Under the pieces are notes generated by a model. The model saw only the letters and a program-made list of their open reading frames with translations. It did not search any database and was not told the origin of the DNA. Shown here piece after piece: positions 19,350-39,488 of a stretch of 64,000 bases of DNA. This stretch comes from Aphelidium insulamus (lineage: Eukaryota > Aphelidiomycota > Aphelidea > Aphelidiaceae), in contig JAZDSV010000027.1 in the NCBI GenBank assembly GCA_036784855.1, positions 130,001 to 194,000 of the forward strand. Direction: 5' to 3'. The position numbers and the translations under genes are program-made. The stretch's first letter is position 1, and every line of letters starts with the position of its first letter.

Positions 19350-20237
19350 ATGTTCAAACTATTGACGGCAGCTGGAATTGCTTGCTGTTCCATTGCATAC
19401 TATGCCGCAGTGTACGTGCTGATTTCAATGTGAAATGCATTTATATATCATGCCATAATCAACTGTGCAGCTCCCATGCAAGCTTGTCCGACATTCGCTG
19501 GCCATTGCGTGGCACTTGGTACGGGACGGATCTGCTATTAGCGGGCAAGAAAAATACTGTCACCTTTTGTTTCGCGCGGTATGCATACACCACATGGTAA
19601 TTGTTATATCTGATCTTTTGCACATAGACGGCCAGTGGCGCTTGATGCTGGCAGTACCAAAATTGTCATGTCGGGCAAGACAAATGGAGGCGTCTGGAAT
19701 CGCCGACTCGTCCTACAGTCTGAAGTACAGACTGAAAAACTGGTGTTGTCCGATAATGGCGAGCTGTTGCCTGCCAGCCTAAGTGGTTACATCACTAGTG
19801 ATCAAGAAGTGCTGTTGCGCCAGGCAAAAAAGCACCTATGCTACGTGCTCCGTTTCACCATAGATAAGAGGGCAAGCTTATTCGTGGGCAAGGTATCGCT
19901 GAAGCTGCGCAAGATGTCCAACCGATTCTTCAAGACAATAAGTATCAAGAAGCACGTCCTTATATCTACGGCGGAACCAAGCAATCCCGAAACTGAAACG
20001 AAATGGGAAGAGCTTCGACGTGAGTTTAGACAGGTGGCACGCGGAGGGCGATTTGATTTCCAAAAAATTGATGTTATATTGGAAGCACTGGGCAAAAGCG
20101 ACAACGCAATGCCCTCTGAAGATATGAAATTTAAACTGGCGAAAGCAATAACTGACTTGCCGCCTGACGCGCTTGAACCTCGCCCCGATATCTCGACTAC
20201 GATAAAAGATCTGTGTGGCCTTTCCAAAAAGAAGTGA
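19350..20237 (+). CDS. Secreted protein, novel three-member family, copy A
   Basis: Exons 19350-19411, 19471-19578 and 19628-20237 encode about 260 residues. Exon 1 is almost only the signal peptide (MFKLLTAAGIACCSIAYYAA). Exon 2 carries the family block PLRGTWYG and ends TFCFAR. Exon 3 contains SGKT, KKHLCYVLRFTI, VGKVSLKLRKMSN and KTISIKK, then a charged helical tail ending in KKK. Both introns are phase 2, exactly as in copies B (23786) and C (38474). No known domain was recognised, so the role is unknown; the signal peptide implies export. A tRNA-Arg gene lies 133 bp downstream. In this copy the YPExLDD motif at the start of exon 3 is degenerate. Confidence 0.8.
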
Positions 20238-20369
20238 TAGCCGTGGCCATCAAGTAATCGACACGTCCTTAATCCATCTAAGCAATATATTTTCGATAGC
20301 GTTTTTTGTTACCGTGTAAATCTACAAAGCCGCCCAACATGTTTATCGTGTGCTTCATGTGGTCAGCTG

Positions 20370-20443
20370 GGGATTGTGGCCTAATTGGCTAAGGCGTCTG
20401 ACTACGAATCAGGAGATTGCAGGTTCGAGTCCTGCCTATCTCA
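20370..20443 (+). tRNA. tRNA-Arg(ACG), copy 1
   Basis: A 74-nt cloverleaf: acceptor GGGATTG with CTATCTC (one T-T mismatch), D arm GCCTAATTGGCTAAGGC, anticodon stem TCTGA/TCAGG with loop CTACGAA (anticodon ACG), T arm GCAGG TTCGAGT CCTGC, discriminator A. There is no intron. A T-run Pol III terminator follows at 20445. It is identical over its full length to the copy at 39790. Confidence 0.95.
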
Positions 20444-20529
20444 GCTTTTTTTTGCACATCATACAATATGCTCTCTCCATGCTTCTTTCTTTATCTTCCT
20501 GTGCTTAACAACTTTTTTTTTGTAAGTCA

Positions 20530-22658
20530 ATGACGGCCACACTGCTGGGCAGACGCATTCAGGTGCGCGGCAAGGGCAGCTCGGGGGCTGATACCGGCAC
20601 CGTGCGCTACCACGGCCCATTAAATACCGACGACAGCCATACAGCCCAAGCTCCCAGCGGCGAATGGCTCGGCGTGGAGTGGGACCATGATGGCCGCGGC
20701 AAGCACAGCGGTCAGCACGCAGGCCGGCAGTACTTTAGCTGCGCGTACGTACTTGTTTTATATGGTGCATGAGATGATAATCTATGGTGTAGTCCCGGCC
20801 GCGGCTCATTCATACGGCCGCGGGCTGCGGACTTTGGACGGTGTTTCATGGACGCGTTGGAGGAAAAGTACGGCGGTGGTGGCGGCGCAGGGATGACCAC
20901 TACCACTGAGACCACCGTCAGCGACGGCATTCAGCTACAGTTTGGCGACACGGGCATTGCGGTAGAGTTTCGCGGGGCTGCCAAGACAGAGCAAGTGCAA
21001 AGGTATCATTACTAGATGTACTTATGTCTTGATATCAAACATACAGCCGGCTGGACTGCTTGACTATTGTTGGACTGGCGCACATGGCGATTTCCACTGC
21101 CGTCAACGAAAGTAGTTGGGACACTAATTCCACCGGCGAAATCGCACGCACCTGTCCCAATATTCAAGATCTGGATCTGTCCGACAACTTGCTTGGCGCA
21201 TGGACCGAGGTTGCGCTCATTGCCTGCCAGCTCCCGCACTTGGCCTCACTGCGCTTAAAGTACGTGTCATAAACGTCATTGTCGATACTCAATGCTCGTA
21301 GCCGGAATCGCTTTGATGCGTTAAAGACTGCGCTACCTGGTGGCTCGTTTTATAGCCTGACGGCCCTGTCGCTAATGGAGACGCGAATTTCATGGCGGGA
21401 AGTATGTTCAGTCGCCGCATTCATGCCAGAGCTGGAACAATTACATCTGGGTCACAATGGCATCAAGTCACCACTTGCCGGCGATGGACCCTTTGAAGCA
21501 CAGCCACTGACTGCGCTGACGTTGCTCTCCCTGGAAAGCAATCAACTCACAGACTGGGCAGACCTGACAACTGAACTGGCAAGAAGGACCCCGCGGTAAT
21601 TCTATTGTGATAAGATTCGATCCAACTCATTGGTAGATTACAAGCGTTGAATGTGCAAAGTAACGCATTCACTGTCATCACAGAAGAAATGGAATCACCC
21701 GAACTGCCTACATTGACAACGCTGAACTTGAGTCGAAATCCAATCCATTCAGTGCGTTCAACTACTTGTCATGTCCTTGTTGACCGCTTCACTTTACAGT
21801 GGACCTCGGTCAATGCGCTGGATACGGTACTGCGTGCCATGACCGAGGTGCGGCTCCGTGGCTGCGCTGTGATCACTGGCGGCGCGGACGAAGCCGCCAC
21901 TCGAATCGAGTGTATTGCCCGCCTGGGCCGAATCCAGTCGTTGAATGGTTCCACGGTGCGATGATGTTTATTCTTTACTTGGTTTATTTTATTCCCGATG
22001 CGTAAAAGATATCGGCGAAAGAAAGGCGCGAAAGCGAGCTATACTATCTGCAGCAATATGCGGCGCAGTGCGCTGCTGCTACTGATCCGAAGGCAATGTC
22101 CGAGTTTAATGTTCAGCACCCCCGATATGCGCACTTGGTGTCAGGTAAGCGATATTCGAGCATTCAATTAACACTTGTTGTTCAACATCCATGTAGTTCA
22201 TGGCGCCTGTATCGCCATAAACAAGGGCGATCAAGGCAAATTGAAGAGCTCTCTCATAAGCACGTAGCTTTATTCTAGTGATTGTTTGACTAACTGGCAG
22301 ATGTCAACCTTATCGTACAGAGTGGAGATGGCGCTGACTGCCGACATATTTGCAAAAAGTTGCCTGGTATGTTAAAATCACCTCAAATGGATGTATTGTA
22401 TGCTGATAAACAGCGAGGACCACGTTCCGCACGTTGAAATCTGTGGTGCGCCGCCTGATCCGCATAGGCAGCTCGGAGACAATGGCGATGCACTTGATTG
22501 TCGGTGCCACCGCGGTGTCAGAACGCGTACAGAACAGCGAGCCGAGCGATGACCAGATGGTGTGTGTGGACGATGAACCGATGCGAGAGCTGGCGTTCTA
22601 TGTGGACGATAGCCGCGATGGCGCTCCAGAACTGTTTATTAGAGTCATGCATAATTGA
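20530..22658 (+). CDS. TBCE: Tubulin-folding cofactor E
   Basis: Chaperone that, with TBCA-D, assembles alpha/beta-tubulin dimers in the cytosol. Exon 1 (from 20530) encodes an N-terminal CAP-Gly domain with GEWLGVEWDHDGRGKHSG. Leucine-rich repeats follow from about 21040 to 21760 (LDLSDN, LHLGHNGI, LESNQL, LNLSRNPI), then the LRR cap. The last exons (22200-22658) encode a C-terminal ubiquitin-like domain (LKSSL, VVRRLIRIGS, ELAFYVDD). This CAP-Gly/LRR/UBL order is diagnostic of TBCE. About eight short GT-AG introns; those between 22150 and 22430 are the least certain. The need for tubulin folding fits the flagellar genes in the window. Confidence 0.9.
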
Positions 22659-22682
22659 ACTATTGCTGTCATTGTCTTCGAT

Positions 22683-23575
22683 AATAGGGGGTTTCAAAGT
22701 TAAAAAATTCCCATCAGTTCTGATTGACAAACAAACGCTGATTGGCTGAGCAAACTGATCGGCCATCAGTTTTGAGCGAAAAAACTGATGGACGAAAAGG
22801 GCCATCAGTTTCCATCAGTTCTGATGGGTCGACAAACCGTCGCCGCTCCTGCCACCTCAGCCTATGCAACCGCCCCACCCCGTCTACTACCGACCTAACC
22901 ACACTATACCACTCCTAATCTCTGCCCGGGGCGGATTATAGTGCTGCAGCGCCACTGCGGTGTCACCATTCATAGCTGTGACAGTGCATTAGGTAGCTGG
23001 CCATGGCTGCATGCGGCACCACGCACGCACACATCACCAACTGGCCCTCGCCTGTGGCTGTATGAGGTTTATCCATGCTGCTGTACAACACACTGACTGT
23101 TGCTGCTGTGTAGTGACAGTTCTGCCTCCCCGCGTGTGGTGTGTGAATAGTACTGCAGCACTGATGCTGCGGGCCGCCACCCAGTTGGTCTGCGCGTGAT
23201 GAGGTATGGTTAGTGGTGAGTACTATCATGGGTGTAATAGTAACCCGCTGTGCAGCATGTGAAAGTACTCTGGCAAAGTATATATACATTGGGATTGCCG
23301 CAGTACTTATGTGGAATAGACCTGAGCCTTATACCACCGCAACAAAGCTTCAAGCACGCACCAACTCAGATTCTACAACAGTACTACCCAGGTATCCTAT
23401 ATCTAGGTCTATCCGCCATAGCACGAGTCAGCGCGACATACGCGGCACTTGTACCGCGCTAGGACACCATCAGAACTGATGGGTGCACTCAAAGTTAAAG
23501 GGCCGTTACCATGGATATTACCCTGAATTTGTCATCAGAACTGATGGGCTCATTTTATATTTGAAACCCCCTATT
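22683..23575. mobile_element. Non-autonomous DNA element with terminal inverted repeats (MITE-like)
   Basis: The outer 16 bp AATAGGGGGTTTCAAA (22683-22698) are matched in inverse at 23560-23575. A second block, CCATCAGTTCTGAT, follows just inside both ends, giving an imperfect TIR of about 45 bp. The palindrome-like word CCATCAGT/ACTGATGG recurs near both ends (22711, 22762, 22784, 22802, 22814; 23467, 23531), as expected for subterminal transposase sites. The ~890-bp interior has no convincing ORF. Directly beyond the right end, another TTAGGGGGTTTCAAA (23575-23589) starts in the left-end orientation, suggesting a nested or truncated second copy. It sits between TBCE and family gene B. Confidence 0.7.
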
Positions 23576-23785
23576 AGGGGGTTTCAAATATAATGAAATC
23601 ATATCGATTAGACAGACAATGCTTGGTTGTTAAGTGAAATGTTAATATGAATGTGATTGGCCGTGGGACTTCCAGGGGAAGAGCTGCAGCGCCTCATTTA
23701 ATTTTTTTCTTCATTTTCTTCATTTTCTTCCTTTTCTTCCTTTTCATCGAAAGAACTTTCATAATTTTCCTTTCTCGAACGTGTG

Positions 23786-24644
23786 ATGAAGACATCTCTG
23801 GCCATCGCGTCCATTGTCGGACTGTTGAGTGTTGGGTCGTTTATTCCGACGTACGTATATGGTGCATGCAATTATTACGCGCTCACATTGTGGCAGTGCT
23901 GAAGCGGGTATTCGCGACGTTCGCGTCCCGTGGCGCGGTCGTTGGTTCGGTACCAAGGAATTGGTGGTCGGCGACACGGCAAATCCTACTTTCTGCTATC
24001 GCGTGTATGTTGGACCGAGTACAGAAGATTGTATACAAATGATTGATTATTCATGGCGTAGATATCCCGAGCAGCTTGACGATGTGGTGATCCGACTCTC
24101 TGGCCGCACTGAAGGACAGCATGGTTGGTTCACGCGTAATACAGCCACGGATTTCCCGGCTGTGGCCACCAAGCTAGAAGTTGCAGAGGATGGCGAAATG
24201 CCGGCATCCATCAGCAACTATGATGAAAATGAATTGAAGGCGCTGGCAGACTACGCCAAGACACACCAATGCTACACGATTGTGTTCAACGTGCGCGAGA
24301 GTGAGGTGGAGAAGTATGCCGGCAAAGTGTCGATGAAGCTCATCAACAACGCTTCCAAGTTCCCCACCAAGACTGTCAGCGTGAAGCGCCAAGTTACACT
24401 TAATTTCGCTGACCTTATTGCCACCAAGATCATGTCGCAGCTTGGTAACGGTTTTGGTGGCGCATTCCACTATGATGGTATCGCGAAACAAGTCGCTCAA
24501 CTGAAGTCAGTGGCCGACATGCTGCACGAAGATGTAAAGTCGCAGTTGCAGTTTACTGTGGAGGCCACAGATTTCTACCGCTCGGCCACTGCTGCAGAAA
24601 AGTTTCGCCTGGTGAAGGACCTCAACGCGATTCTGGCTGCCTAG
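23786..24644 (+). CDS. Secreted protein, novel three-member family, copy B
   Basis: Exons 23786-23850, 23897-24004 and 24062-24644 encode about 250 residues. Exon 1 is the signal peptide (MKTSLAIASIVGLLSVGSF). Exon 2 holds VPWRGRWFGTKEL and ends TFCYR. Exon 3 starts YPEQLDD, then KTHQCYTIVFNV, AGKVSMKLINNASKF and KTVSVKRQV. The tail after about residue 165 is not conserved with A or C. Intron 1 uses the donor GTACGT in phase 2, as in A and C. A T-rich tract and the TIR element lie upstream, with no shared promoter block. The function is unknown; it is exported by inference. Confidence 0.8.
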
Positions 24645-24713
24645 TCACCTCTGCAATGCTGCCACTCTCCACTCAACTAGACAGCTAGACACCATCATCA
24701 TACACAAACGCAT

Positions 24714-24737
24714 ACACACACACACACACACACACGC
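24714..24737. repeat. CA dinucleotide microsatellite
   Basis: About twelve CA units lie in the short convergent gap between family gene B and the CCDC25 stop. Confidence 0.85.
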
Positions 24738-24784
24738 AATATACATCCTCATACAACCAGTTCCAGACTATTAACTGTATGCCA

Positions 24785-25593
24785 TCACATGAAATCATCC
24801 TCGAACGCGTCAACGTCCACTTGACCGTCCGGCGCCACGTACTCGGCGGCCAGTGAGCTGTTGTCCTGCATTGCCGCCGGCACCAGCACCGATTTGTAGG
24901 CGGTCTCATCGGCGCGCTTCCTGGCCTCGGCGGATCGACGGCGCTCCGCCTCCATCGCCCTTTGCTCCCGCTCGCGCTCCTCATTGCGCACCTGACGCCG
25001 ACTGTCCAGCTGCATCTGTGCCAGCATCTCACGCACACCCTGCGTGACCTCCCGCCGCGTCTTCTGCAGCCGGTTCAGACAGGCGGTGTCGCGGCGCGGG
25101 ACCAGCACACGGCGCACGGCCTTGTCGTCACGGAACCCCACCTGGCCCACCTCCATGCTGCGCCGCTTGTCCAGATTAGACCACGGTGTGTACACCACGT
25201 GTATCGAAGGCCGCTTTGAGCCCTCGATGCTGTTGGCCTTGGTGAGCTGGGCGCAGTCATGCAGCAGCGCCTCTGAAATGTCCGTCCTCCAGTCTAGGAT
25301 AGGTTTATGTATCATCATCTCTGCATATGCATTGTAGGTGTACTACACATCCACACACGCACACCCACCTTGACCGGGGGCCAGACGCAGGTAGACGTGC
25401 GCGGATGACAGGTTGTCGGCGTGGAACCAGACGTCTGCGCGTGTGTATGGTCAGCGCATGTGGAGAATGCACACCAGGCGCGCTCACCCTCCTCCAGGCC
25501 AAACTTTATCAGGTCCTCATTCTCAAACTTGTCCTTGCCCATGTAGATGGTGGCGGGCGGTTGCTGTGCCGTGCTCTCAAAGTAGTACACCAT
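24785..25593 (-). CDS. CCDC25: CCDC25-like NFACT-R (DUF814) protein
   Basis: Small conserved eukaryotic protein with a stand-alone NFACT-R/DUF814 domain and a C-terminal coiled coil. Three exons are seen: the first begins [11 protein letters not shown] and carries [16 protein letters not shown], a middle exon encodes [15 protein letters not shown] (about 25460-25370), and the last encodes [14 protein letters not shown] and [10 protein letters not shown] long Arg/Glu-rich coiled coil follows, and the protein ends in an acidic EDDFM tail like its homologues. Both introns are GT-AG. In animals CCDC25 is also reported as a membrane sensor of extracellular DNA; that role is not inferred here. Confidence 0.9.
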
Positions 25594-25742
25594 GTCAATT
25601 GCGTATAAATATGGTGTGTTGTGTATATTGTGCATGTGCTGCAAGATTATAGTGCCCAGCGTGTTGCTTTAAAATTATAGATTTTTTTTCTATTTTTTTG
25701 CATCTGAAAGCTCCATGTAAACGATGTAAACTGCTTGATTCA

Positions 25743-26558
25743 TTATTTATGAATATAAACTTGGGCACAAGTCAATCCGGCCATTGCGTCAACATGCACC
25801 ACCGCGTCAATGGCACAATTTTCGCAAACCGTGACAAAAAAATCGCCAATGCTGTCGTTTACTTCTGTTCCCGTGTAACTTGGCGTGGTTTGGCAGTTGT
25901 TTAGTTGAAGTAATAATGTTAGAGTTTCCTTACTCTGGTTAGTCTGTTGTAAGACTGTGTCATGGTCATTCGTGTTTGCTTGCAGCTCGCAATAAAAACG
26001 CGGACAAGGGTTTCTCTTTCTCTTCTTTTCCGGTGGTTTGTCGTGCGGGTACAGTTTACCGTCAAATTTAACTTCGCGTTTCTTGGCGGTCATCACACCG
26101 TAGTCGTTGTCAAATCGGCACTTAAAGTCTCCCTTTGAATTATAACTTGTATTTTCTAGGCAGTTGTCGACGCGCTGTGCTATCTGCGACGGATACAGCG
26201 CACCGCCGATCACGTAGATTGCCTTGGCAAACAAGAGCCCGAAACCGATCGGAACGGCAAAGGCAGCAATGCCAAAAATTACGCCCAACCGGCGGCCGCT
26301 GTCGCGTTTGGTCTCGCATAACTCATCGTTAGTGCCTTTGCAATAATAGTTCGCAAGGATGCGGTTCGCACCACTGCGGGTTAGTTTTCCCTTCTTGTCG
26401 ATCAGGTTTTTGACTTGACGATAGAACGTCCTGGCGCGATGTTCGTTCAAGAAAAAGGCGCGCATTTTTTTCGTCCTAGCCTTATCCAACCTGTTTTCGT
26501 ACGCCAATGCATGCGACGCAAAGCACGCAAAGCATAGGAGCAATGCAAGCAATCTCAT
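25743..26558 (-). CDS. Secreted/membrane protein of unknown family
   Basis: Single-exon 271-residue protein. A clear signal peptide occupies residues 1-19 (MRLLALLLCFACFASHALA). A basic helical stretch follows, then a long Gly/Ala/Phe-rich hydrophobic segment (about residues 90-120, IFGIAAFAVPIGFGLLF) that could span a membrane. Next come a KKRKRNPCPRF basic patch and several Cys near the C-terminus. No family was recognised. Upstream on the minus strand are three repeats with ATTGG (CCAAT) boxes that may be promoter elements. A secreted or surface role is inferred from the signal peptide alone. Confidence 0.65.
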   Translation of the reverse strand: MRLLALLLCFACFASHALAYENRLDKARTKKMRAFFLNEHRARTFYRQVKNLIDKKGKLTRSGANRILANYYCKGTNDELCETKRDSGRRLGVIFGIAAFAVPIGFGLLFAKAIYVIGGALYPSQIAQRVDNCLENTSYNSKGDFKCRFDNDYGVMTAKKREVKFDGKLYPHDKPPEKKRKRNPCPRFYCELQANTNDHDTVLQQTNQSKETLTLLLQLNNCQTTPSYTGTEVNDSIGDFFVTVCENCAIDAVVHVDAMAGLTCAQVYIHK

Positions 26559-26666
26559 TTTGTTGCAACAAAATGTGACTCTATACAGATGACTGTATTT
26601 GTGTGCAATTTCGTTGTAATTTTAGTACCCACCTCCGATTGGGCCGTCAAATCATATCGGCACCGG

Positions 26667-26741
26667 TTTAAACTACCAATCAGAAAGCCAGAGTTTAAAA
26701 CTTTAAACTACCAATGAGAAGCCAGCGTTTAAACTACCAAT
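26667..26741 (-). promoter_or_regulatory. Triplicated CCAAT-containing upstream repeat
   Basis: TTTAAACTACCAAT occurs three times (26667, 26702, 26728), each followed by a related CAGAAAGCCAG or GAGAAGCCAG tail in the first two copies. It starts about 110 bp upstream of the minus-strand secreted-protein gene (ATG 26558). On that strand each unit presents ATTGG, an inverted CCAAT box. Nothing else was recognised in 26559-26924. Confidence 0.5.
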
Positions 26742-26930
26742 GAGCGTTGAGTGTTTAAAACGGCCGTTCGAACGTTTGTGACACCATACAGCTATCATCA
26801 ATAATGCATGCAACCACAGCGCAGCTACATTAATGGCATCGCAATATAGTGCGCTACACATATGCGCCGCGGATAAAGTTGCGGCACCTAATACGAGCTG
26901 TGCGACAATATTCTGTTGAATATGCTAGTT

Positions 26931-27194
26931 ACATATTGTTGGGATAATACACTGGCGCCATTTGCTGTAGATCTGCGCTAACGTCACCAAACCATGACAA
27001 TCGCTCGATACCGTCATTATTGAGTTATCATCGATAATCATCACAAGTTGCATGCACCCGCTGGCGTTATACATTGGTTTTGCTGAATTTAAGTATTGTA
27101 ATGCTTGATATCGGCGGCATGTCAAAAGTTTACTTACACGAGGAGTCGGCACCAGGTGCGCGTATGGAATGGGGGCCCGATTGGAGGAGGCCAT
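26931..27194 (-). CDS. Possible two-exon micro-protein
   Basis: A minus-strand ATG at 27194 opens MASSNRAPIPYAHLVPTPR and meets a good GTAAGT donor. A downstream acceptor (CTACAG) would continue in frame with QMAPVYYPNNM and stop, giving about 30 residues. The reading is weak: short, no homologue recalled, and the unspliced frame is also open. It is listed only as a candidate. Confidence 0.2.
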
Positions 27195-27288
27195 ATTGCC
27201 AATTTAGCAACGATTGGCAGCCATGAAAATTAAAGCTCACCTGAAAACCATGCAACTAACAACTAAATACTTTCAACACCGAGTACTA

Positions 27289-27537
27289 CTAGTGCAAACG
27301 CTTTTTCATTTGATCATAAGCGACAAAGGCGGGATTTTTCTTCCAGTAGTTGATGCTCAGCCCGACCACGAAGCCAAGCGTGCATTCCGTGCACCATGTG
27401 GACAGACACGCGTGCCACGTTCGTCGATAAACCGGCGGATTTTGCTGGATTCGCAGGTATGCAGCAAAACCAAATGGTAATGGTGTGTGAGGTGCCGGGA
27501 TTGAGCCAAACTTGGCACTGAAAAAACGGCGAATCAT
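27289..27537 (-). CDS. Small putative mitochondrial membrane protein
   Basis: 82-residue single-exon frame starting MIRRFFSAKFGS, a basic amphipathic N-terminus like a mitochondrial presequence. A central hydrophobic segment (ECTLGFVVGLSINYW) could span a membrane, and the C-terminus is Lys-rich (AYDQMKKRLH). Its size and layout resemble small inner-membrane subunits or assembly factors, but no specific family is recognised. Confidence 0.4.
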   Translation of the reverse strand: MIRRFFSAKFGSIPAPHTPLPFGFAAYLRIQQNPPVYRRTWHACLSTWCTECTLGFVVGLSINYWKKNPAFVAYDQMKKRLH

Positions 27538-27596
27538 GCGACGCACTCAGCTACAGGTCCTGACTGTAGGTAAACAAGTGTTGAAGAACGTGAATC

Positions 27597-27613
27597 GGGG
27601 GGGGGGGGGGGGG
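27597..27613. repeat. Poly-G tract (17 nt)
   Basis: An uninterrupted run of 17 G lies in the 450-bp gap between the small mitochondrial-type gene and the GH26 gene. The rest of the gap holds only the GH26 promoter. The run is G-quadruplex-prone and its length may be misassembled. Confidence 0.9.
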
Positions 27614-27929
27614 ATACGTAATGAACGTACCAAAAAAGACTCTATTTCATACATGTATCCAACATCTTTGAGGCGAAATATCACTCTCTAAAATATAACG
27701 GCATCGATTTAATAATACGAACATGCCACGGCCAGTCGTGGCATGAAGCAGCAGAATTCAAACACCGTTTATAACACATTTATTGTCAAATGTCTCGTAT
27801 GTATATTCACCTGTGATACGCATACAAACGAAGTCTGACCTCGTTTCACTGTGAAACGGCAAGATCGACGATGATTGGCGCCGCGCAACCCGGTCGAAAC
27901 ACGCGTGTGCAACGTTACATTCTGGCTGT

Positions 27930-27937
27930 TATAAATA
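27930..27937 (+). promoter_or_regulatory. TATA box of the GH26 gene
   Basis: TATAAATA lies 57 bp upstream of the ATG at 27987, preceded by GGCTGT. Its position and form match the TATA boxes of the other secreted-protein genes. Confidence 0.6.
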
Positions 27938-27986
27938 CCGCGCTCTGTCGCTTACTTGCAAGAACAATAAAACAACAACAACGATA

Positions 27987-29147
27987 ATGATGGTGACAAA
28001 AGTAACGGCATTGATGATGTGGGGCACTGTTGTCGCATTATTTGCAGCAGTGTCTGCCTTGCCATTTGACGGCAGCAGTAATGGCGATGGCAGTGGCGAG
28101 GATGGCGACGGTGGCCATAAAGGCGGCCGTAAACTGTACTACGGTGCGTACACCGACAGCGATGACGCCATGAGGACTCTTCAAGATCGTTTGGGGCATC
28201 AACCGGCAATGCGGCTCGAGTTTGTCGCGTTGCATTCCGGTGGGTTTGACGATGAGTGGTTCCCGCTGGGCTACTTGAACAAAGTGCGCGACGAGATGCC
28301 GGGCACGGTGCCTGTGCTCACCATCGAACCTTTTGTGGACGATTTGGACTCGATCAGCTATGATACATACTACAAAATTGCATCACAATTTGCACAGTTC
28401 CCCGACACGCATATCGTGCGTTTCGGTCACGAATGCAATGGCATGTGAGATGACTTTGTATTAAATATGCCGAAATTAACATCGTGTGCAGGTAACTGGT
28501 ACCCATGGACAAACGATAATGAAAAGTACAAGAAGCATTTCAACATCTTTGGCAAGGCGCTGCGTGACATGAATGCCAAGACCAAGATGATGTGGGCGCC
28601 CAATATTGAGTATCCGGGTATTAAATATACCTATGATCAGGTGTATCCGGGCGATGATTATGTCGACATCGTTGGACTGAGCATCTACCACAAGTACTAC
28701 GGCCCTGATCCAAACTACGAAGGTGATTACCACGTGGGTCCCAGTCAAGGAACATTTGCCGATCAAATCACTGGCAAAGCGGAAGAAATGCAAGGCCAGG
28801 GCACGAATTTCTACGAAATATACTCCAAGAACAAAAATTTGCCGTTCATGGTGGCCGAGACAGCGGCATCCACTTTTTACGGACTCTCTGAAGAAGAAGA
28901 ACGAGCGTGGAAATTGGATTGGCTCAACCAGCTGTTCTCGAAAGAAACGCTGGATCAGTTCCCCAACTTTCGTGGCGTGAATAGGTTCGATGTGAACAAG
29001 GATGACGAAGATTCCAGCGACCAGATGCACCACGGCCTCTTCAATCGTGACAATTTGTACACGAGCTTCTGTGACTTTTTCAATTCGGTGGACATTGTTC
29101 GCTACGCACCGGCAGTCCAGTCCAACGGGTTGGATCTGAGCGTCTAG
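27987..29147 (+). CDS. Secreted glycoside hydrolase family 26 (beta-mannanase-like)
   Basis: Exons 27987-28440 and 28492-29147 encode about 370 residues. A signal peptide (residues ~1-24) precedes a Gly/Asp-rich linker and a GH26 TIM barrel. The join at a GC-AG intron creates RFGHECNGNWYPW, the hallmark GH26 acid/base region (Glu in HExNG). The second catalytic Glu is visible in FMVAETAAS on a late beta strand. VGLSIYH also fits the fold. GH26 enzymes cleave beta-1,4-mannans, sometimes mixed-linkage glucans or xylans. Secretion implies digestion of plant, algal or microbial walls outside the cell. The family is common in bacteria and scattered in fungi and protists, so horizontal origin is possible but not shown. 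Confidence 0.88.
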
Positions 29148-30220: not shown

Positions 30221-30257
30221 CGATTATATATGTGTAACATTATGTTAAAATTCGTAT

Positions 30258-31155: not shown

Positions 31156-31305
31156 ATATGTATGTAGAAGAACTTTTGTCGCCTTGACAGTATACAGCCT
31201 CAAGGCAATTGTTTATATGTACATCGTGCAGACATATAACAAGTCTATGTGCATAAATGTGCGTGTGCCTGCCAGTTGGTGGTGGTGGTGGTGGTGGCTG
31301 TCCAA

Positions 31306-31610
31306 TTAGCGTCCGTATCCAGCACCGCCGCCAACGCCGCCACCAGGCAGACCCATTGACGACAGGCTGGACCACGCAGGTCCGGCAGTCCAATAAGCCG
31401 TCAATCCCACCAGCGTTGTCATCAGTGTCACAATCATCTGCAATGATCAATTCATGCACATGCATGCGCATACATCTATAATCTGCTACTTGCCGGCAGG
31501 GTAAACACGCAGAGCGGCGGGCAGAGCACACTGACCGGACAGCAGGGGATCAGCACGGCAAACAGGGCCATGGCGATCATGACGCCCACGATGGAGATGA
31601 TGTCAAACAT
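31306..31610 (-). CDS. Small two-exon membrane protein
   Basis: 83 residues. Exon 1 (31610-31494) starts MFDIISIVGVMIAMALFAVL and holds a Cys/Pro-rich loop. Exon 2 (31437-31306) holds a second hydrophobic helix (IVTLMTTLVGLTAYW) and a Gly-rich tail ending GGGAGYGR. The exons join in phase 0 only with a GC-AG intron (donor GCAAGT). Two predicted membrane segments are present and the family is unknown. Confidence 0.5.
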
Positions 31611-31914
31611 TGTTGTAGAATGCTGTGGTAGAGTAGGTGTAGTAGAGCGTGGTAGGGGCCGTAACTGACTACAGTCAAAAGCGCGTCTGGAGGACAATGC
31701 TGGCACAGTGTGGCATTTATAGGTCGAGCCATCAGAACACGGCTGGCGTGTCCATCACACACTGATTGCGTGTCACTGATTGCACGTCTAGGTGCCACAT
31801 CATACGGTAGAATACAGACACACTGTATCCAGGATGCTTGTCTAATTATGTGGAGACTGTGACACATACACCTAGTGTGCGCACGGCCACCCACTCGGAC
31901 AACAACGCGCCAAT
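31611..31914. other. Intergenic region
   Basis: A gap between two minus-strand genes. No RNA gene or repeat was recognised. Confidence 0.4.
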
Positions 31915-32316
31915 TTAGTCAAACAGACCAAAGCCCATGTCGTCGTCAGACTCTTCGGCAGCCTCCTCCTTCTTCTTCTCCTCCTTCTTGCTCTCGGCGG
32001 CCGGGGCGCTACCGGCAGCGGCGGCGGGTGCGGCGCCACCACCAACGGCCATGGCGGGCATGCTGGCCATCTTGCTGGCACCCTCGGCAATCACCTAATA
32101 TGGAGTTATGATCAGCGCGAACACAGAGAACCAGCAACATATATATTGATATACCTCGGTCATGTTCTTGCCAGACAGCTCCTTGATGAGCTTGTTGACG
32201 CGCTCATCGTCGACCTCGGCGCCGACAGCGGCCAGGACCTTCTTGACGTCGTCGGCGGACGGGGCGGCTTCGGAGCCGTTCAGCGACAGCAGCATGTATG
32301 CGGCAAGGTACTTCAT
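31915..32316 (-). CDS. RPLP2: 60S acidic ribosomal protein P2
   Basis: Stalk protein of the large ribosomal subunit that recruits translational GTPases. Exon 1 begins [16 protein letters not shown] and covers the helical dimerisation domain ([17 protein letters not shown]). After a single short intron, exon 2 has the Ala/Gly hinge and the acidic C-terminus [13 protein letters not shown], which is diagnostic. The total of about 112 residues is normal. Confidence 0.97.
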
Positions 32317-32353
32317 TTTGTCGGCTACGCGGCGGCATTAGATACAAGGGTAC

Positions 32354-32361
32354 TGAGAGAG

Positions 32362-32393
<32 letters not shown>
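32354..32393. repeat. GA microsatellite in a ~630-bp intergenic gap
   Basis: A (GA)n run lies just upstream of the RPLP2 start, in its promoter region. The rest of 32317-32945 holds no convincing gene. A CTGATTGGCTGAG CCAAT-type element lies near 32540. Confidence 0.85.
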
Positions 32394-32395
<2 letters not shown>

Positions 32396-32945
32396 CAGGG
32401 CACGCACATTGATTTCAAAGAGTCGCCCAGAGAAAGTTTTACGTGGTATACTTTACTGCGCACGCGAGGTGGATTAAGGCGAGACGGGCGGGCTGGCGGT
32501 GCGGCGGGCTGCTTGTAAGGTTGTCTCGGTGCGCTTCTCTGATTGGCTGAGTGCTTCGCGAAGGGTACGTTAAGCAAACCGCGCAATGCTAGTGTATTGC
32601 TGCATTACATAAATATATATATGGCTGACGTGTGCGCCGTGTCCATCGGGTTCACTAGTGCACACCTCACATTTGATGTAGATGTATGTATATTCTACCA
32701 TCATAATAAAGGGACGGTGGCCTCACATATAGCGCCGCCGTGATCCTCCAGAGTGATGGCAGATCGTCATGAGTGCCCCATGCATTTACAGCTTCCATAC
32801 GTATGTCGACTGCACACAGTTGAACTGTATGCTGGGCATGACCGCATGAAGACAATATGCGCGGGCTACATGAACCTGAAGTTGGTTGTGATATATAGTG
32901 TGAGATATAATCGTGTTGAGCATCCCTTACAATTAAATAAATACA

Positions 32946-33587
32946 ATGTGGGCGGCGACGCGTCGATTAATTGCCACGACCTGCGGGCCTGCCAGGCCGA
33001 CGACGCGACCGACATGCATGGTATACAGAATGTTGCCGCCATTGAGGCCACTCACGAGCTGGGCAACGGCGTCAAGGTCGATGCATTGCATCACGGCACC
33101 GCGCCCATCACCGGCACCGCTGCAACCATCACTGGCAGCACCACAACTAATAATAATACGGCCGCAATGGAAGGCATCTGTGCACACCAGCGCCCCACGA
33201 CTGGCCACCCTGAACCAGGTGATCAGGGGCGCGCGGTCGCCACGCGTCAAGAAACCCCGCTCACCCGCACTGGACCACGCGCCAATGAAGCGCGGCACCT
33301 GCCTCAAAGTCTACACCGTCAAACCCAAGAAACCCAACTCTGCGCAGCGCAAAGTGGCCAAGGTGCGCCTGTCCAACGGGCAGGAGGTGCTGGCCTACAT
33401 ACCCGGCGAGGGGCACTCGCTGCAGGAGCACTCGGTGGTGGGTGTGCGCGGCGGGCGTGTGTCGGACTGTCCGGGTGTCAAGTACCATTTGATACGCGGC
33501 AAGTACGACCTGCAGGGCGTGGCAAACCGGCAGACCTCGCGCTCAAAGTACGGTGTCAAGAAGCCGCAGTCCGCCGACGCCAAGTAG
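32946..33587 (+). CDS. MRPS12: Mitochondrial ribosomal protein uS12m
   Basis: Single-exon 213-residue protein. The first ~85 residues are Arg/Thr/Pro-rich without acidic residues, a long mitochondrial targeting and linker region. The rest is the S12 core: [65 protein letters not shown] and a C-terminal [10 protein letters not shown]. It belongs to the decoding centre of the small mitoribosomal subunit. The targeting extension is longer than usual. Confidence 0.93.
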
Positions 33588-33855
33588 TGATGCGGACTAC
33601 AATCTATACAATCTATACATACACTATATATATATATATAGTACAGCATTCCTGGACAGGAAGCGATACATTCAAGTGTGTGTGTGTATATATAAGTGCG
33701 AGAAGTAAGAAGGGTGAAAAGAAGCGAGGAAAAAAGAAAGAAACACAGACCACTGAGTTACAACAAAAACACAACAAAACTCTCTTGCACCCCAACTACA
33801 TATGTATACAACACCGTGTCAGAGCCGCCGCCGCCGCTGCCGTACCATCAGCGAG

Positions 33856-35307
33856 TCACGCTTGGGGTCGGTGGGTGGAAGTGCATCCACACTGGCTGGT
33901 TGAGCGGGAACACAGCCATCGCTGCCATACACAAATCTCTGTATGGTGACAGGAGTGGGAGATAGTGCAAGTAGTGCACTGCTGTTGCTGCTCTCCATTG
34001 TTGCTGCTGTCCGCTGTTGCCGTGTCGTCAGTGACAGTGTCATTGTCTAGCAGGCAATGATATATAGATACCTTTAAGCAGCGCACAGCAATGCCAGTCT
34101 GGGCTGGCTGTCTGGGCGGCTGGTCAGCCTCATGAGTGGCCCACCTGACTCGCCGCCGTGACTGCCCATGATCAACACCACCATCACCATCAACATCTGC
34201 AATGTCGCAATGATCAATGAGGGCCTCGGCGCGCGCCTGAGCCGCAAACAGCGCCAGTGTTTTGGCATTCGGACTGTCGGGTCGCGGCCCAGGTCTGTGC
34301 ACCTCCAGCACCAGTTTGGCGCGCAGTGGCACCTGGTTGCGTGCCGTGTTGAGCAGTGTCACTTGCCGCAGCTCCTCCGCCGACAGGTGGTGTATGTTGG
34401 GCAGGATGACGGTGTTGAAGAGACGCACGTGGTCGTCGTCGTGGTCGTCATGATTGTCCGTGGTGGCGGTGCTTGTCGGCATATCTTCTGGTGCCTGTGC
34501 CACCGGTTGTCTGTGCATTAATTGACGACAAGATCTCCGCCGCTGCCGCCGCCACCATGGTTGAAGCAGAAGTACGGCGGCCATGACGCGTGCACGGTAC
34601 TCGCAGCTCTGTCGAAAGCATCGACGCAGCATGGACCATGCTCGCCGCATATGATGCCAATGAAGGTGGACAGTGGCGTCGCAGCTGGCGGCCAGCAGTG
34701 GCAACAATGAAGTGGCGGGCACTGCGTGTGCCACCGCAGTCGCCACTATTCTCTCGCAGGTGGACGGCTCTGTGCCGATAAACACCTGCCGGGTCGGGGT
34801 CCATGCCCCGCAGTTGTGCTCTGCGCTCGGGGGTGATGCGCATTTATCGCTACTTTGGTGCTTGTCATTGAGGTTGTTGCTGACGGCAGCGTCAATGTTC
34901 TCCTTGTTGGGCACATCCTCGCTGCCGGATAGCGGCTTGCTTCGTTCCTTTCTGGCAGCAGTGCAGACACCAACAGTACTTGGCACCGGCTTGTCGAGTG
35001 TGCGAGAGACAGTGACCTTTTGCGGCACGTTGGCCACCCTCGAGAGACCCCGCTGCCGGTGTTGTGGGTAGCTGATGGCAGGTGCCGGGGAGATGCCGCG
35101 ATGACCGCCGTGACTCAGAGCGGCTGGCTTTGCGGTCGCCACAGGGATGGCGGATCGACCGCCGTGTGACTGTGTTGTGACGGCCGGCAGAGATGTGGAT
35201 CGCGGTACTGCTCGGCGGGCACTGCCACCACCACCCACACTGCCACCACCAACAGCACCCGGAGCTTGCTGCCGCTGTTGCCGATGTGTTGGCGCCCGTG
35301 CAAACAT
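33856..35307 (-). CDS. Hypothetical basic protein with an IQ-like helix
   Basis: A ~480-residue frame with no recognised domain. The N-terminal third is Gly/Arg/Pro-rich and disordered. The middle has an Arg/Trp-rich helical stretch (AVLLLQPWWRRQRRRS) that resembles IQ or calmodulin-binding segments. The best-ordered piece is HHLSAEELRQVTLLNTARNQ with following Leu-rich helices. The very C-terminus is uncertain: an in-frame 25-nt GT-AG candidate at about 34065-34041 would be unusually short for this genome, and skipping it changes the end to 33819. Confidence 0.45.
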   Translation of the reverse strand: MFARAPTHRQQRQQAPGAVGGGSVGGGGSARRAVPRSTSLPAVTTQSHGGRSAIPVATAKPAALSHGGHRGISPAPAISYPQHRQRGLSRVANVPQKVTVSRTLDKPVPSTVGVCTAARKERSKPLSGSEDVPNKENIDAAVSNNLNDKHQSSDKCASPPSAEHNCGAWTPTRQVFIGTEPSTCERIVATAVAHAVPATSLLPLLAASCDATVHLHWHHMRRAWSMLRRCFRQSCEYRARVMAAVLLLQPWWRRQRRRSCRQLMHRQPVAQAPEDMPTSTATTDNHDDHDDDHVRLFNTVILPNIHHLSAEELRQVTLLNTARNQVPLRAKLVLEVHRPGPRPDSPNAKTLALFAAQARAEALIDHCDIADVDGDGGVDHGQSRRRVRWATHEADQPPRQPAQTGIAVRCLKVSIYHCLLDNDTVTDDTATADSSNNGEQQQQCTTCTISHSCHHTEICVWQRWLCSRSTSQCGCTSTHRPQA

Positions 35308-35361
35308 TTTGTGGTGTGCCGGTGTGTGTCACTGGGCACAATCACGAACTCATATATGTAT

Positions 35362-36658
35362 GTAGTGTGAATAGAGTCGGATTTAACTGTATGTATGTAT
35401 GTATGGCTGCGGCAGAATTGCGCGGACTTGGCAAGCAAGCTCGTGATTTGCCGCCGACAATTTTGGAATCGCGACAATCGCCATTGCGGCACGTCCAGTG
35501 CAGCCTGGCTGAACGGCGCCTCCTGTTGAACTGGTGGTTAAATGGCCTTCAAGCCATCGAACCGGCATGATATGCCGCGTTTACAGCCAAGAAATCCCCA
35601 CGCAAGGTGGCGGACGGTTACAAATTGCCAACTGTGCCATCAGGCACAGGATTGAAGGCTGGAACCAAGAGACAGAATCTCGGACGATTAGCCGCATTGG
35701 CGGTGAATGGCCGAGCAGAGGAATTAATAACCAGACAAGTCTGGATATGTGCACTGCACAAGTCATGGGGCCAACGCGAAGATGAGCACTTTGCGACCCT
35801 GCTTCGCGCCCTCCGTGTGGTAGCGGATAAGGTGCTTGGGCGAGAAGAGGTGAACAGAATGGGTTGATCCGCCAGGATCCTCCACAGCCGGCGTGGGTGA
35901 ACAACCCAGAGATCACCAATGAGCTATGCGTGTATACCGTAGCAGTCATCAGATGGGTGCAATATCCCCATACTACATGTCCGTGTCTGGCGGCGTGTAT
36001 GAAGATATGGTCAGCCGGAATTAAACACTCCGTGCAGCCAAGTGCCAGTTGGGCAGACCCGATGCTGTAGGGGAGGGCGGGAGTACCGTGTACCCTGGCG
36101 GCACGATAGCGGTCAGTAAGCCTGGTGTCTGTGACACCTGGAAAACCGTTACAGAACGGAGATCCATAAGGATTAATTAAATAGCAGACCCGATGCTGTA
36201 GGGGAGGGCGGGAGTACCGTGTACCCTGGCGGCACAATAGCGGTCAGCAAGCACCTCAGCAACAATCAGTTGCACTCGGTAACGAGAAGATCATAAGCCG
36301 CCTTTGGCGCAAGCACATCATACACACTTTCACCTCATGTCGACTCTGGAACAACTAAACACTGACCTCCGGAAGGCTCCGCCGCATCATTAAATCACGG
36401 TACTATGGAGCAAACTGCTGGCGCTCACCGGCACGAGCCAGGAAGGGCAGCTATAGATGTATGTGCATACAGTCCCACCTCGGCATTTTGGCGGTCTCTT
36501 GGAACCGGACTGTCGAAAAGATATCTGCGATTACGCGGCAAGGCGATATTTACGGGAGACGGCGTTGACTCGGGGTCATTTCCCGCCACTGGAGGGTTTT
36601 CTTGGGATGCAGATGTCGCAGTAGTGTAAATAGAGTCGGAATTAACTGTATGTATGTA
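35362..36658. repeat. Segment bounded by 38-bp direct repeats (putative mobile or duplicated unit)
   Basis: 35362-35399 and 36621-36658 match at 36 of 38 positions (core GAGTCGG, then TTAACTGTATGTATGTA). The 1.2 kb between them has no introns or recognised gene but does have partial frames on both strands (for example 35607-35867 and 36405-36629, plus). It also holds a separate 69-bp direct repeat (36053-36121 and 36184-36252, two mismatches). The layout suggests an inserted element or a decayed one with short terminal direct repeats. No transposase or reverse transcriptase motif was recognised. Confidence 0.45.
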
Positions 36659-36764
36659 GCTATGCACTCTGCAGACCAACAATAACAATATTTTATACAA
36701 CAATAATATTTTATAGCTGTATTATGTGTGCGCGTGTATGCATTATGTGTATGCAGGTGAGAGG

Positions 36765-38039
36765 TCAGCGACCAATGATGGGGAACTCGAAGCCACTGGG
36801 TGGCTGCTTGTACTTGCCGGGATATATTTTGCGCAGTATCGCGTGCACGCAATGCTTCACGTAATCGAGGTCGACGGCATTCTCGAGTGTGACCAGCTCG
36901 TGGACGTCAAAGTTGCTGTTGCGTCCCGAATTGTCCTTGACCAACTGGTAGGCCAGAGCGGCGTCAATTGGATGCTCAAAGTAGCCGATAGTGTGAAGTT
37001 GCTTGTTCACTTTAATTTGTGCTTTCCACAGGTGGCGGCGCTCAGAGTAGCTGACACCGCGAAACGCGTCTGGCGCCTTCAGTTCCACCGGGCCAATGGT
37101 GCGACTGCCGCGCTGTGTCTGGTGCAGCTGCACCAGGCTGGGGAACCGCTTGTTGGCATGTTCGGTCATTTGAATTGCGCCCTGATGTGCGTAGTTGATT
37201 GCTTTGGACTTGTCAGTGAACACATAGCCACCAACGATGAATTCTTTGTCAAGATTTTCAAACGGTTTCATCATCTGCTCTTCAGTGGCGTCGCGTGCGC
37301 CTTTAAGCCACTGACGTGAATCTCCAGCCAACTTTATAATATATTTTGATGTTTTCCGGGACATTTTGTTACGCGGCTCGTAATCCTCGAACTGCACCGC
37401 GCGGCTACTGGGAATGACGCGTGGTGCTGGAGCTGCACGCTTTCTCTGTCTCTTTGGCGGGGCACTGGGAATCGCGGCATCATCATTCGCGATGTCGTCC
37501 ACATTGCGGTCCACGTTGTCGGCGGCTCTCGCGGAAGGGGTCTTCTTGGAAGCAGTCGATTTCTGTGCCCCAGCACGGCGCTTGTTTGCCGGTGCCGGGG
37601 CTGCTTTCTGACCACCAGCGGTTGTGCGACGGCGCTTGTTTGCCGGTGCCGGGGCTCCGTCGGCGGTTGCGCGACGGCGCTTGGAGGCTGGCGGAGCACG
37701 TTTCATCGCCATCTTCATCGCTGCCTCCTCGTCTTTCTCCGTCTCGGAATCTTCGCGGTCTGGTTCAGACGGGGCGTACTCGGAATCGGACGCCGCGTCA
37801 CCGCCGTCTGATTCCGAGGACGCGCCACTGTCGTCTGATTCCGAGGCTACTGGTCTCTGCGCGCCTACTGGCCTCTGGCGGCGACCACGTGCAGCGCGCG
37901 CGATGATGTCATCCACGCCGTCACTGGATGTCTGGCTGGATGCCGGGGTATTGCCGGCGCTGCACTCTTGACACACGCTGGCCACAATAAAGAGAAGCGT
38001 GGCCAGTGCCGCATATGCATTTCCGGGCACTGCGCGCAT
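36765..38039 (-). CDS. Secreted AP2-domain protein with NLS-like basic clusters
   Basis: Starting at ATG 38039, the protein (~424 residues) opens with a signal peptide (MRAVPGNAYAALATLLFIVA, cleavage after a Cys/Ser/Ala stretch). A longer in-frame start at 38219 would bury this segment. Next come an acidic Ser/Asp/Glu region, then repeated Ala/Pro modules with basic KRRR clusters (about 37690-37560) that look like nuclear localisation signals. The C-terminal third has an AP2/ERF-type DNA-binding fold: FRGVSYSERRHLWKAQI, IGYF and DAALAYQLVKDNSG match the conserved GV, W, G-F and AA-AY positions. A secreted protein built for nuclear entry and DNA binding is unusual. It could be a host-directed effector or a misread internal start. 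Confidence 0.7.
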   Translation of the reverse strand: MRAVPGNAYAALATLLFIVASVCQECSAGNTPASSQTSSDGVDDIIARAARGRRQRPVGAQRPVASESDDSGASSESDGGDAASDSEYAPSEPDREDSETEKDEEAAMKMAMKRAPPASKRRRATADGAPAPANKRRRTTAGGQKAAPAPANKRRAGAQKSTASKKTPSARAADNVDRNVDDIANDDAAIPSAPPKRQRKRAAPAPRVIPSSRAVQFEDYEPRNKMSRKTSKYIIKLAGDSRQWLKGARDATEEQMMKPFENLDKEFIVGGYVFTDKSKAINYAHQGAIQMTEHANKRFPSLVQLHQTQRGSRTIGPVELKAPDAFRGVSYSERRHLWKAQIKVNKQLHTIGYFEHPIDAALAYQLVKDNSGRNSNFDVHELVTLENAVDLDYVKHCVHAILRKIYPGKYKQPPSGFEFPIIGR

Positions 38040-38204
38040 ATTTGAATCGTGTTGATGTGTGTGTGTGGGAACTGAGAGAGAACGCCTGACCAACAGCAAC
38101 GCATCGGTGGCGCTTCCATTGTGCTGGCTTGCGAGTGTGTGGCTGTGTGCCAGTGTGGCTGTGTGCCTGTATCTGTGACAGTGGATCGGGATCAAATTGG
38201 CTGC

Positions 38205-38250
38205 GACAGTCAGGGGCACATTCCATTGAGCACGTGAATGAAGCGTGATT
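38205..38250 (+). promoter_or_regulatory. Upstream block shared with family gene A, plus TATA
   Basis: GACAGTCAGGGG (38205-38216) and AGCGTGATT (38242-38250) repeat the pair found upstream of gene A. GTATAAAG follows at 38255. The block lies in the divergent gap between the AP2 gene (ATG 38039) and family gene C (ATG 38474), so it could serve either. Confidence 0.5.
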
Positions 38251-38473
38251 TCGGGTATAAAGTCGGCTCAGTACGCGCATGTGTGTTCAACAATTACAAC
38301 ACTTCTCTCTAACGTTCATCAATATTCTTCTTCACTACACTCGCTCGGCGTAGTCAAATTCCCAAGTCAGATCATATCACCGAAACCCCCTTTTTACGCA
38401 ACTGTTTTCAACACAAGTATCCCAATTCCATCTTTTATCAGTCCACTCCAGATTTACTCGCCGCTTTAGCGCC

Positions 38474-39488
38474 ATGAAATTGGCTTTCGCAGCAGCAGCG
38501 GTGCTCGGATTCTGTGCTACGGGGTACGTACGCGTCTACGTGTGTCAGATATGATGGCATGAGTAACCTCTGTTAGCGCCAATGCCTCGTTGGGTGATGT
38601 GCGTCTGCCTTGGCGTGGCTGGTGGTACGGTCCTAAAGAGCTGCAAATCGGCGCCGAGGCCCGCCAGACATTTTGCTTTCGATGGTACATAATTATACCA
38701 TATAGTCATTTACATACAAATGACATATTAGGTATCCGGAGAAACTGGATGACTCCATCCAGATCGTCTTTACCGGTAAGGCAATACGGCCGAAAGATGG
38801 ACGTACGCGACCCATTTATGACGTTATGGCTGCTACTTCCGAAAGGCTAAAGCTGACAAGTAGCGGCAAGCTGCCTGATAGTGTGATGGACTATCACTTG
38901 GCTGATCAAGAGAAACTTTTGGAGAAAGCAAAAAAGCACGTGTGCTACGTTTTACGATTCACCATTGCGGATCACGCAAAAGTGTTTATCGGCAAAGTTA
39001 ATATGAAATTGCGCAAGAATTCTAACCGAGTAATGAAAACGATCAGCGTCAAGAGAAACGTCGAGCTCTACGAACAATCTGCTGTTGACCGAGTGCAGCC
39101 AGATTTATCGCAGGAAGCAAAGCGCTCAGCGCCACATCATGGTACTCAACGTGATGATAAGAGTGTCCCGAGCCCCAATGAAGCCGGCACAAGCGCTCAC
39201 AATGCAGAAAGTTCAACTAATAAGATTAACAAAAGGAAATCTGTCGACTATCTATGGGTGAACCTGATGAATGAAGTCCTGACGGTGATTAATACGGATG
39301 GCACACTTGACAACGTTGATACAATTGTAAAAGAATTACGCGAGCTTAATCTGCCGCCATCAATCGGTACAAAGCGATATCTTGAAGCTTATGCCATGGA
39401 AGGCCGTTTTGGCGAATATTTCCGACAAAAGAATCGCATGGACCTCCTGGCTGAAATTGCGAGACTGGGAAATCTCAGTAAAGGCTAA
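38474..39488 (+). CDS. Secreted protein, novel three-member family, copy C
   Basis: Exons 38474-38523, 38577-38684 and 38732-39488 encode about 305 residues. Exon 1 is the signal peptide (MKLAFAAAAVLGFCATG). Exon 2 carries LPWRGWWYGPKEL and ends TFCFR. Exon 3 starts YPEKLDD, then KKHVCYVLRFTI, GKVNMKLRKNSN and KTISVKRNVEL. A Ser/His-rich linker and a helical tail rich in Leu, Arg and Glu follow. Both introns are phase 2, as in A and B. A tRNA-Arg identical to the one after gene A lies 302 bp downstream. The function is unknown. Confidence 0.8.

What the first reader, a model, noticed from the sequence alone, without database searches (positions are those of the whole stretch)
19350..39488. 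Undescribed secreted three-gene family (A 19350-20237, B 23786-24644, C 38474-39488) with a signal-peptide exon
Seen: three genes with different signal peptides, each on its own exon 1 cut in phase 2 at the same GTACGT donor. All three share a 108-nt exon 2 with PWRGxWYG and TFCFR blocks (A: PLRGTWYG) and an exon 3 with KKHxCYVLRFTI and GKVSMKLRK-like blocks. Tails after about residue 170 are unrelated. Inference: a lineage-specific exported family with a conserved N-domain and variable C-terminal tails, as in effector families. I know of no matching domain.
Basis: partly seen in the sequence, partly recalled or inferred. Interest (0 to 1): 0.8.

Follow-up and report, generated by a model that had tools for sequence, protein, structure and literature searches.

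The report
Modular secreted protein family, unknown fungus
These three genes belong to a larger family of apparently exported proteins in what is probably a swimming-spore fungus; each joins the same small two-cysteine domain to a different tail, a layout often seen in proteins that parasites send into their hosts, although no host role is shown here.

Summary
A, B and C are three-exon genes: a signal-peptide exon ending in phase 2, a 108-nt exon 2, and an exon 3. Their tails after about residue 170 show no detectable similarity. Each of 10 left-out groups is recognised by a profile of the others (E 8e-9 to 1e-31; best shuffle 14.3 bits). The N-domain has exactly two cysteines in 17 of 18 aligned members, so I propose one disulfide. 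All 21 best models begin with a hydrophobic leader; intron 1 is phase 2 in 19 of 19 spliced ones. One locus seems to hold three domains in tandem (weak matches); two genes have kinase-like tails (weak, frames change). Word-based searches of 5.8 billion proteins found no relative. EF1A and an axonemal dynein chain suggest a flagellated fungus-like organism; species and lifestyle are unknown. Best explanation: an effector-like family laid out like crinklers, with its own N-domain. Export is well supported by sequence; host delivery is inference.

The parts
19350..19411 (+). Gene A exon 1: signal peptide (62 nt, phase 2, donor GTACGT)
19471..19578 (+). Gene A exon 2: first part of the N-domain (108 nt), PLRGTWYG ... 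TFCF, first conserved Cys
19628..19973 (+). Gene A exon 3, rest of the N-domain (KKHLCYVLRFTI, GKVSLKLRK), second conserved Cys
19974..20237 (+). Gene A variable tail (87 aa), no Pfam match up to E 0.5
23786..23850 (+). Gene B exon 1: signal peptide (65 nt, phase 2, donor GTACGT)
23897..24004 (+). Gene B exon 2: first part of the N-domain (108 nt), PWRGRWFG ... TFCY
24062..24410 (+). Gene B exon 3, rest of the N-domain (KTHQCYTIVFNV, GKVSMKLIN)
24411..24644 (+). Gene B variable tail (77 aa), no Pfam match over its cut-off
38474..38523 (+). Gene C exon 1: signal peptide (50 nt, phase 2, donor GTACGT)
38577..38684 (+). Gene C exon 2: first part of the N-domain (108 nt), PWRGWWYG ... TFCF
38732..39077 (+). 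Gene C exon 3, rest of the N-domain (KKHVCYVLRFTI, GKVNMKLRK)
39078..39488 (+). Gene C variable tail (136 aa), no Pfam match over its cut-off

Best explanation
A, B and C are local tandem-derived members of a genome-wide family (at least 21 genes) of soluble secreted proteins of a flagellated fungus-like organism. Each protein is built as: a signal peptide, usually on its own exon joined in phase 2; a ~140-residue, mostly beta N-domain held by one disulfide between its two conserved cysteines; and a fast-changing or swapped C-terminal tail that carries the specific activity. I think the most likely working is effector-like: the protein is exported, the disulfide-stabilised N-domain acts as a common stabilising or carrier module, and the tail acts on a target outside the producing cell, most plausibly in a host or prey cell, since the recognisable tail types (kinase-like, perhaps ankyrin-like) normally work in cytosol. 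Shown by computation: common ancestry, shared gene anatomy, leader-like starts, the cysteine pair, tail divergence. Weakly supported: tandem domains in one gene, kinase tails. Inferred: the disulfide, the fold, export in life, the host role.
For: Gene models and motifs. Common ancestry by leave-group-out profiles. Pattern for P-x-R-[AG]-x-W-[FY]: 17 genome matches against 0 for the reversed pattern; I count 14 of 17 as members (one a degraded copy) and 3 not (two read; the third, C139, has the same 21 letters as one of those and was not read). Leaders: 21 of 21 best models have a 9-residue hydropathy of 2.1-3.5, against 7% of 400 random anchors at 2.0 or more (3% at 2.5); intron 1 is phase 2 in 19 of 19 spliced models, which the script did not impose. 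Intron 2 is phase 2 and just after the first conserved Cys in the model of 15 of 21 genes (for 3, best-scoring model for 12); three (C129a, C129b, C167) read on in one frame without it; three (C64a, C146, C1) are unresolved. Two cysteines and no more in 17 of 18 N-domains. No transmembrane-like stretch in 17 of 17 longer rows, leaders set aside (highest 19-residue hydropathy 1.32). Contig-wise clades. Kinase-like tails.
Against: No expression, proteomics, host or lifestyle data. The leader test is a hydropathy score on the best of many models, not SignalP; the C146 model is doubtful. Kinase matches are sub-threshold (E 0.011-0.034 for 3 of 4 pieces, one of them to the lipopolysaccharide-kinase family; the fourth piece matched nothing), and both kinase-tailed genes change frame between the lobes (one also has TGA at the first conserved Cys), so they may be pseudogenes or assembly errors. 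None of 10 tails scanned, A, B and C included, matches a family over its cut-off, so no payload is shown for A, B or C. Kinases also work inside secretory pathways (recalled), so a kinase tail does not prove host-cytosol action. The window also holds ordinary housekeeping genes.
Confidence: 0.5

Rival explanations
1. Secreted structural, adhesive or wall-associated proteins of the organism itself (for example of the spore coat or attachment stage), diversified without any host target.
For: Leader, soluble, cysteine-paired domain, perhaps repeated in one gene; lifestyle unknown.
Against: Tails diverge almost beyond recognition within one genome: 3 of 91 tail pairs at z above 6, one more (B and C109c) at 3.4. 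Kinase-like tails fit poorly. Wall anchors and low-complexity repeats were not tested.
Confidence: 0.25
2. A secreted weapon or recognition system aimed at competing microbes or non-self cells: common N-domain for export, variable C-terminal activities, as in polymorphic toxins.
For: Same header-plus-variable-tail layout and contig-wise clades; two tails gave sub-threshold matches to toxin families (E 0.061 for C, E 0.15 for C93).
Against: Those two matches are far below their cut-offs and cover different families; no match over a cut-off in the 13 of 21 tails scanned. No partner (immunity) gene was looked for.
Confidence: 0.12
3. A divergent lipocalin-like (ligand-binding) secreted family; the G-x-W-Y motif of exon 2 resembles the lipocalin signature (recalled).
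For: The three-row profile matched nitrophorin-7 weakly over this motif (3 chain sequences, E 0.35-0.5); one member of 18 matched Pfam Lipocalin_5 at E 0.22.
Against: The better, 18-row profile matches no PDB chain up to E 10; large tails follow the domain.
Confidence: 0.07

Closest known systems
CRN (crinkler) effectors of oomycetes and some chytrids
   Same: Signal peptide, conserved N-terminal domain of about 130 aa, highly variable C-terminal domains including kinases (passages of PMC5289972).
   Different: HVLVxxP in 0 of 17 and 0 of 18 rows; LFLAK within one mismatch in 0 of 18 N-domains (1 of 17 longer rows); no crinkler family among the Pfam matches of 18 N-domains up to E 1. The N-domain here has a conserved cysteine pair.
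RNase-like candidate effectors (CSEPs/RALPH) of powdery mildews
   Same: Sequence-divergent secreted family with a shared relative intron position and, in most members, at least two cysteines (passages of PMC3582587).
   Different: Those are described there as related to ribonuclease T1; here extra tails follow, and a [YFW]xC string occurs in 3 of 18 N-domains. Fold not tested.
RAYH / AvrSen1-like candidate effectors of Synchytrium endobioticum
   Same: Zoosporic fungus; species-specific secreted family with conserved intron-exon boundaries, one motif and otherwise variable proteins (passages of PMC6572847).
   Different: RAYH in 0 of 17 and 0 of 18 rows; those proteins have an alpha-helix-bundle core (passages of PMC12503489), this domain looks mostly beta (crude method).

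Membership tests
CRN (crinkler) | LxLFLAK motif in the N-domain | tested here: not met
   0 of 18 N-domains have LFLAK within one mismatch
CRN (crinkler) | HVLVxxP motif closing the N-domain | tested here: not met
   0 of 17 and 0 of 18 rows
CRN (crinkler) | Variable C-terminal domains, some kinases | tested here: inconclusive
   Tails variable; kinase matches weak and both genes change frame
CRN (crinkler) | Delivery into host cells | not testable with these tools
   No organism, host or expression data
RNase-like effectors (RALPH/CSEP) | RNase T1-like fold | not testable with these tools
RNase-like effectors (RALPH/CSEP) | [YFW]xC motif | tested here: not met
   A string of this kind in 3 of 18 N-domains
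RNase-like effectors (RALPH/CSEP) | Intron at one relative position across divergent members | tested here: met
   Phase-2 intron just after the first Cys in 15 of 21 genes, not needed in 3, unresolved in 3
RAYH / AvrSen1-like | RAYHxxVFExLKxLF motif | tested here: not met
   0 of 17 and 0 of 18 rows; two RAYH strings in the window's six frames, neither followed by the rest of the motif
Lipocalin | Significant match to a lipocalin model | tested here: not met
   1 of 18 at E 0.22; 18-row profile against PDB: none up to E 10
Lipocalin | Eight-stranded barrel | not testable with these tools
   No structure

The most novel reading that the evidence does not exclude
The two-cysteine N-domain is a new export-and-delivery header of a zoosporic fungus, independent of crinklers, RXLR and RAYH proteins: a beta domain on its own exons, able to repeat in tandem, to which different payloads (kinase-like and others) have been attached, giving a second invention of the crinkler layout at the base of the fungi.
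Probability: 0.2. Interest if true: 0.85.

Novelty: new variant of a known kind. Interest (0 to 1): 0.56.

Why it matters
Early-diverging fungi parasitise algae, plants, animals and other fungi, yet few of their secreted host-acting families are defined (general knowledge). A family with one recognisable N-domain, a fixed exon anatomy and unrelated tails gives a simple search key for candidate effectors in this and related genomes, and a test of whether the header-plus-payload layout arose more than once.

Tried and rejected
Known domain: Pfam on A, B, C (5 families, each matched by 1 of 3, best E 0.073) and on 18 N-domains (11 families, each matched by 1 of 18, best E 0.0047, to a photosystem cytochrome; curated cut-offs are not printed for these tallies); NCBIfam on 17 members (7 families, each in 1 of 17, best E 0.018). 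Tails: 13 of 21 scanned, none over a cut-off; a PMC2NT match turned up in two tails (C64b E 0.012, C93 E 0.064), C167 gave Ank_3 E 0.15 and Hce2 E 0.21. Protein database: nothing; searches scored only the 7998 and 7996 candidates sharing most words, one search scored 2899. PDB: only the weak nitrophorin match, lost with the better profile. RxLR strings occur in 2 of 18 N-domains and 6 of 17 longer rows, dEER in none; not pursued.

Rhizaria (plasmodiophorids) were considered from intron size and the ankyrin and GH26 genes; set aside because polyubiquitin units repeat every 76 aa without an inserted residue (the Rhizaria insertion is recalled). EF1A carries an insertion that I recall as opisthokont-wide and scores higher against 1f60 (904.5 bits) than against EF1A1/EF1A2 chains (870.6 and less) (that 1f60 is yeast and the others mammalian is recalled).

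Species by literature: searches gave nothing useful. Candidate C116:88579 was dropped: profile E 0.17 and 0.36. Pattern places C2:324548 and C45:10551 were read and are not members; C139:523836 was not read. tRNA genes lie beside A and C but in 0 of 17 other loci scanned.
Full report
What is there. The window is part of contig C94 (130001-194000) of an unnamed 17.95-Mb genome in 169 contigs. The three genes are present exactly at the stated coordinates. Splicing gives uninterrupted proteins of 259, 251 and 304 aa. In each, exon 1 encodes a signal peptide and ends in phase 2 at GTACGT; exon 2 is 108 nt; exon 3 holds the rest of a shared domain and a private tail. N-domain identity to A is 34% for B and 45% for C; the tails show no similarity above shuffles. 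GTACGT looks like a common donor of this genome, as a neighbouring gene seems to use it too (my reading), and most other family members use other GT donors.

It is a family of at least 21 genes. Searching the genome with C, B, then diverged members and with a DNA pattern for P-x-R-[AG]-x-W-[FY] (17 matches, 0 for the reversed control; 14 of 17 counted as members, one of these a degraded copy) gave 21 genes with both exon parts, on 13 contigs: A, B, C (C94); C93; C129a, C129b; C167; C112a, C112b; C109a, b, c; C119; C108a, b; C58; C4; C64a, C64b; C146; C1. Three more are partial or degraded: C4:9023, C163:25870, C64:127579. The searches score only the best candidates, so this is a lower bound. 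Eighteen N-domains were aligned; C112b (frame change), C64a and C146 (unresolved splice) were left out, and C1 was kept although its splice is unresolved too. Leaving out each of 10 groups in turn, a profile of the rest finds every left-out member at E 8e-9 to 1e-31; the best of 1000-3000 shuffles per group reached 14.3 bits, the weakest true member 31.7. Within the window only A, B and C match the exon profiles. The tree groups A, B and C (100/99), the C109 trio (100/99) and the C108 pair (100/100), while 7 of 15 inner branches are unresolved: local duplication followed by fast divergence.

Anatomy. The best model of each of the 21 has a leader with hydropathy 2.1-3.5, against 7% of 400 random anchors at 2.0 or more; 19 have it on its own exon and all 19 use phase 2, which the script did not impose; C112a and C112b have it in one exon with the domain start. 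The C146 leader model is doubtful. Intron 2 is phase 2, just after the first conserved Cys, in 15 genes; in three related genes the frame reads on without it; three are unresolved. The N-domain has two cysteines and no others in 17 of 18 rows; the exception has one, with TGA at the other place. Averaged Chou-Fasman propensities suggest about seven strands and a weak helix before the second Cys (a crude method). Leaders set aside, no transmembrane-like stretch appears in 17 of 17 longer rows, some of which are incomplete.

Modularity. Downstream of the C119 domain, in the same orientation, lie two further copies of both motifs; they match the exon profiles only weakly (exon 2: E 0.081 and 0.016; exon 3: E 0.0021 twice), and that all three belong to one gene is my reading, as no splice model was made. 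C129a and C129b carry kinase-like tails: three of four pieces have a kinase-type family as best match (E 0.011, 0.022, and 0.034 to the lipopolysaccharide-kinase family, all below cut-off), the fourth nothing; in the PDB listing for one piece, 14 of 15 chains are protein kinases, E 0.096 and up. C167's tail has a weak ankyrin-like stretch (E 0.15). Ten other tails match nothing over a cut-off.

Who carries it. EF1A has an insertion that I recall as typical of opisthokonts and scores best against 1f60, which I recall as yeast EF1A; a window ORF matches dynein axonemal intermediate chain 1 at E 1.9e-77, so the organism probably builds a flagellum. Together: probably a zoosporic fungus or close relative. 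The species is not identified.

Novelty. No relative in three database searches, and no family matched by more than one member in Pfam or NCBIfam. These methods could miss relatives at the roughly 20% identity seen within the family, and as not even A, B or C themselves came back, the organism's own proteins seem not to be in that database; 'lineage-specific' therefore means 'none found'. Papers were searched for comparable families; no title or abstract start in those listings mentions this domain, but most subscription journals are not held.

Interpretation. Export and modularity of tails are well supported by sequence; the effector role is inference from layout, divergence, clustering and the tail types. 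The layout is closest to crinklers and the shared-intron, two-cysteine logic is closest to powdery-mildew RNase-like effectors, but motifs that mark these two, and RAYH proteins, are absent or rare.

Noticed in passing
22682-23593: A ~0.9-kb element with 43-nt terminal inverted repeats (86% complementary, starting TAATAGGGGGTTTCAAA) and CCATCAGTTCTGATGG-type palindromes, ending about 200 bp upstream of gene B; looks like a non-autonomous transposon.
   Followed up: partly
20370-20443 and 39789-39865: tRNA-Arg(ACG) genes lie just downstream of genes A and C; an 88-nt stretch is 97.7% identical, as if gene and tRNA were duplicated together. No tRNA in 17 other family loci.
   Followed up: yes
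46152-47480: Ankyrin-repeat protein (Ank_2 E 4e-23) with a hydrophobic leader-like stretch near its start; possibly another secreted protein.
   Followed up: partly
27987-29147: GH26 glycoside hydrolase (E 2.2e-7 for the second ORF; the first ORF matched nothing); the first ORF begins with a leader-like stretch.
   Followed up: partly
36765 to about 38040 (minus strand): Protein with a leader-like start, basic KRRR-type stretches and a weak AP2-like stretch (E 0.0049, below cut-off): a possible secreted, nucleus-directed DNA-binding protein.
   Followed up: partly
15702-16199 (+) and 25743-26558 (-): Two more ORFs with leader-like starts and no Pfam match up to E 0.01.
   Followed up: no
L046 (C129:370944-371387, minus), L044, L031: Family members with an in-frame TGA at a conserved Cys or frame changes in the domain or tail; pseudogenes or assembly errors.
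   Followed up: partly
51386-51883: Long low-complexity (IHTY-rich) microsatellite-like stretch seen in the ORF list.
   Followed up: no
G000 C2:115352-116062 and C2:138998-139549: Two EF1A copies or part-copies about 23 kb apart.
   Followed up: no
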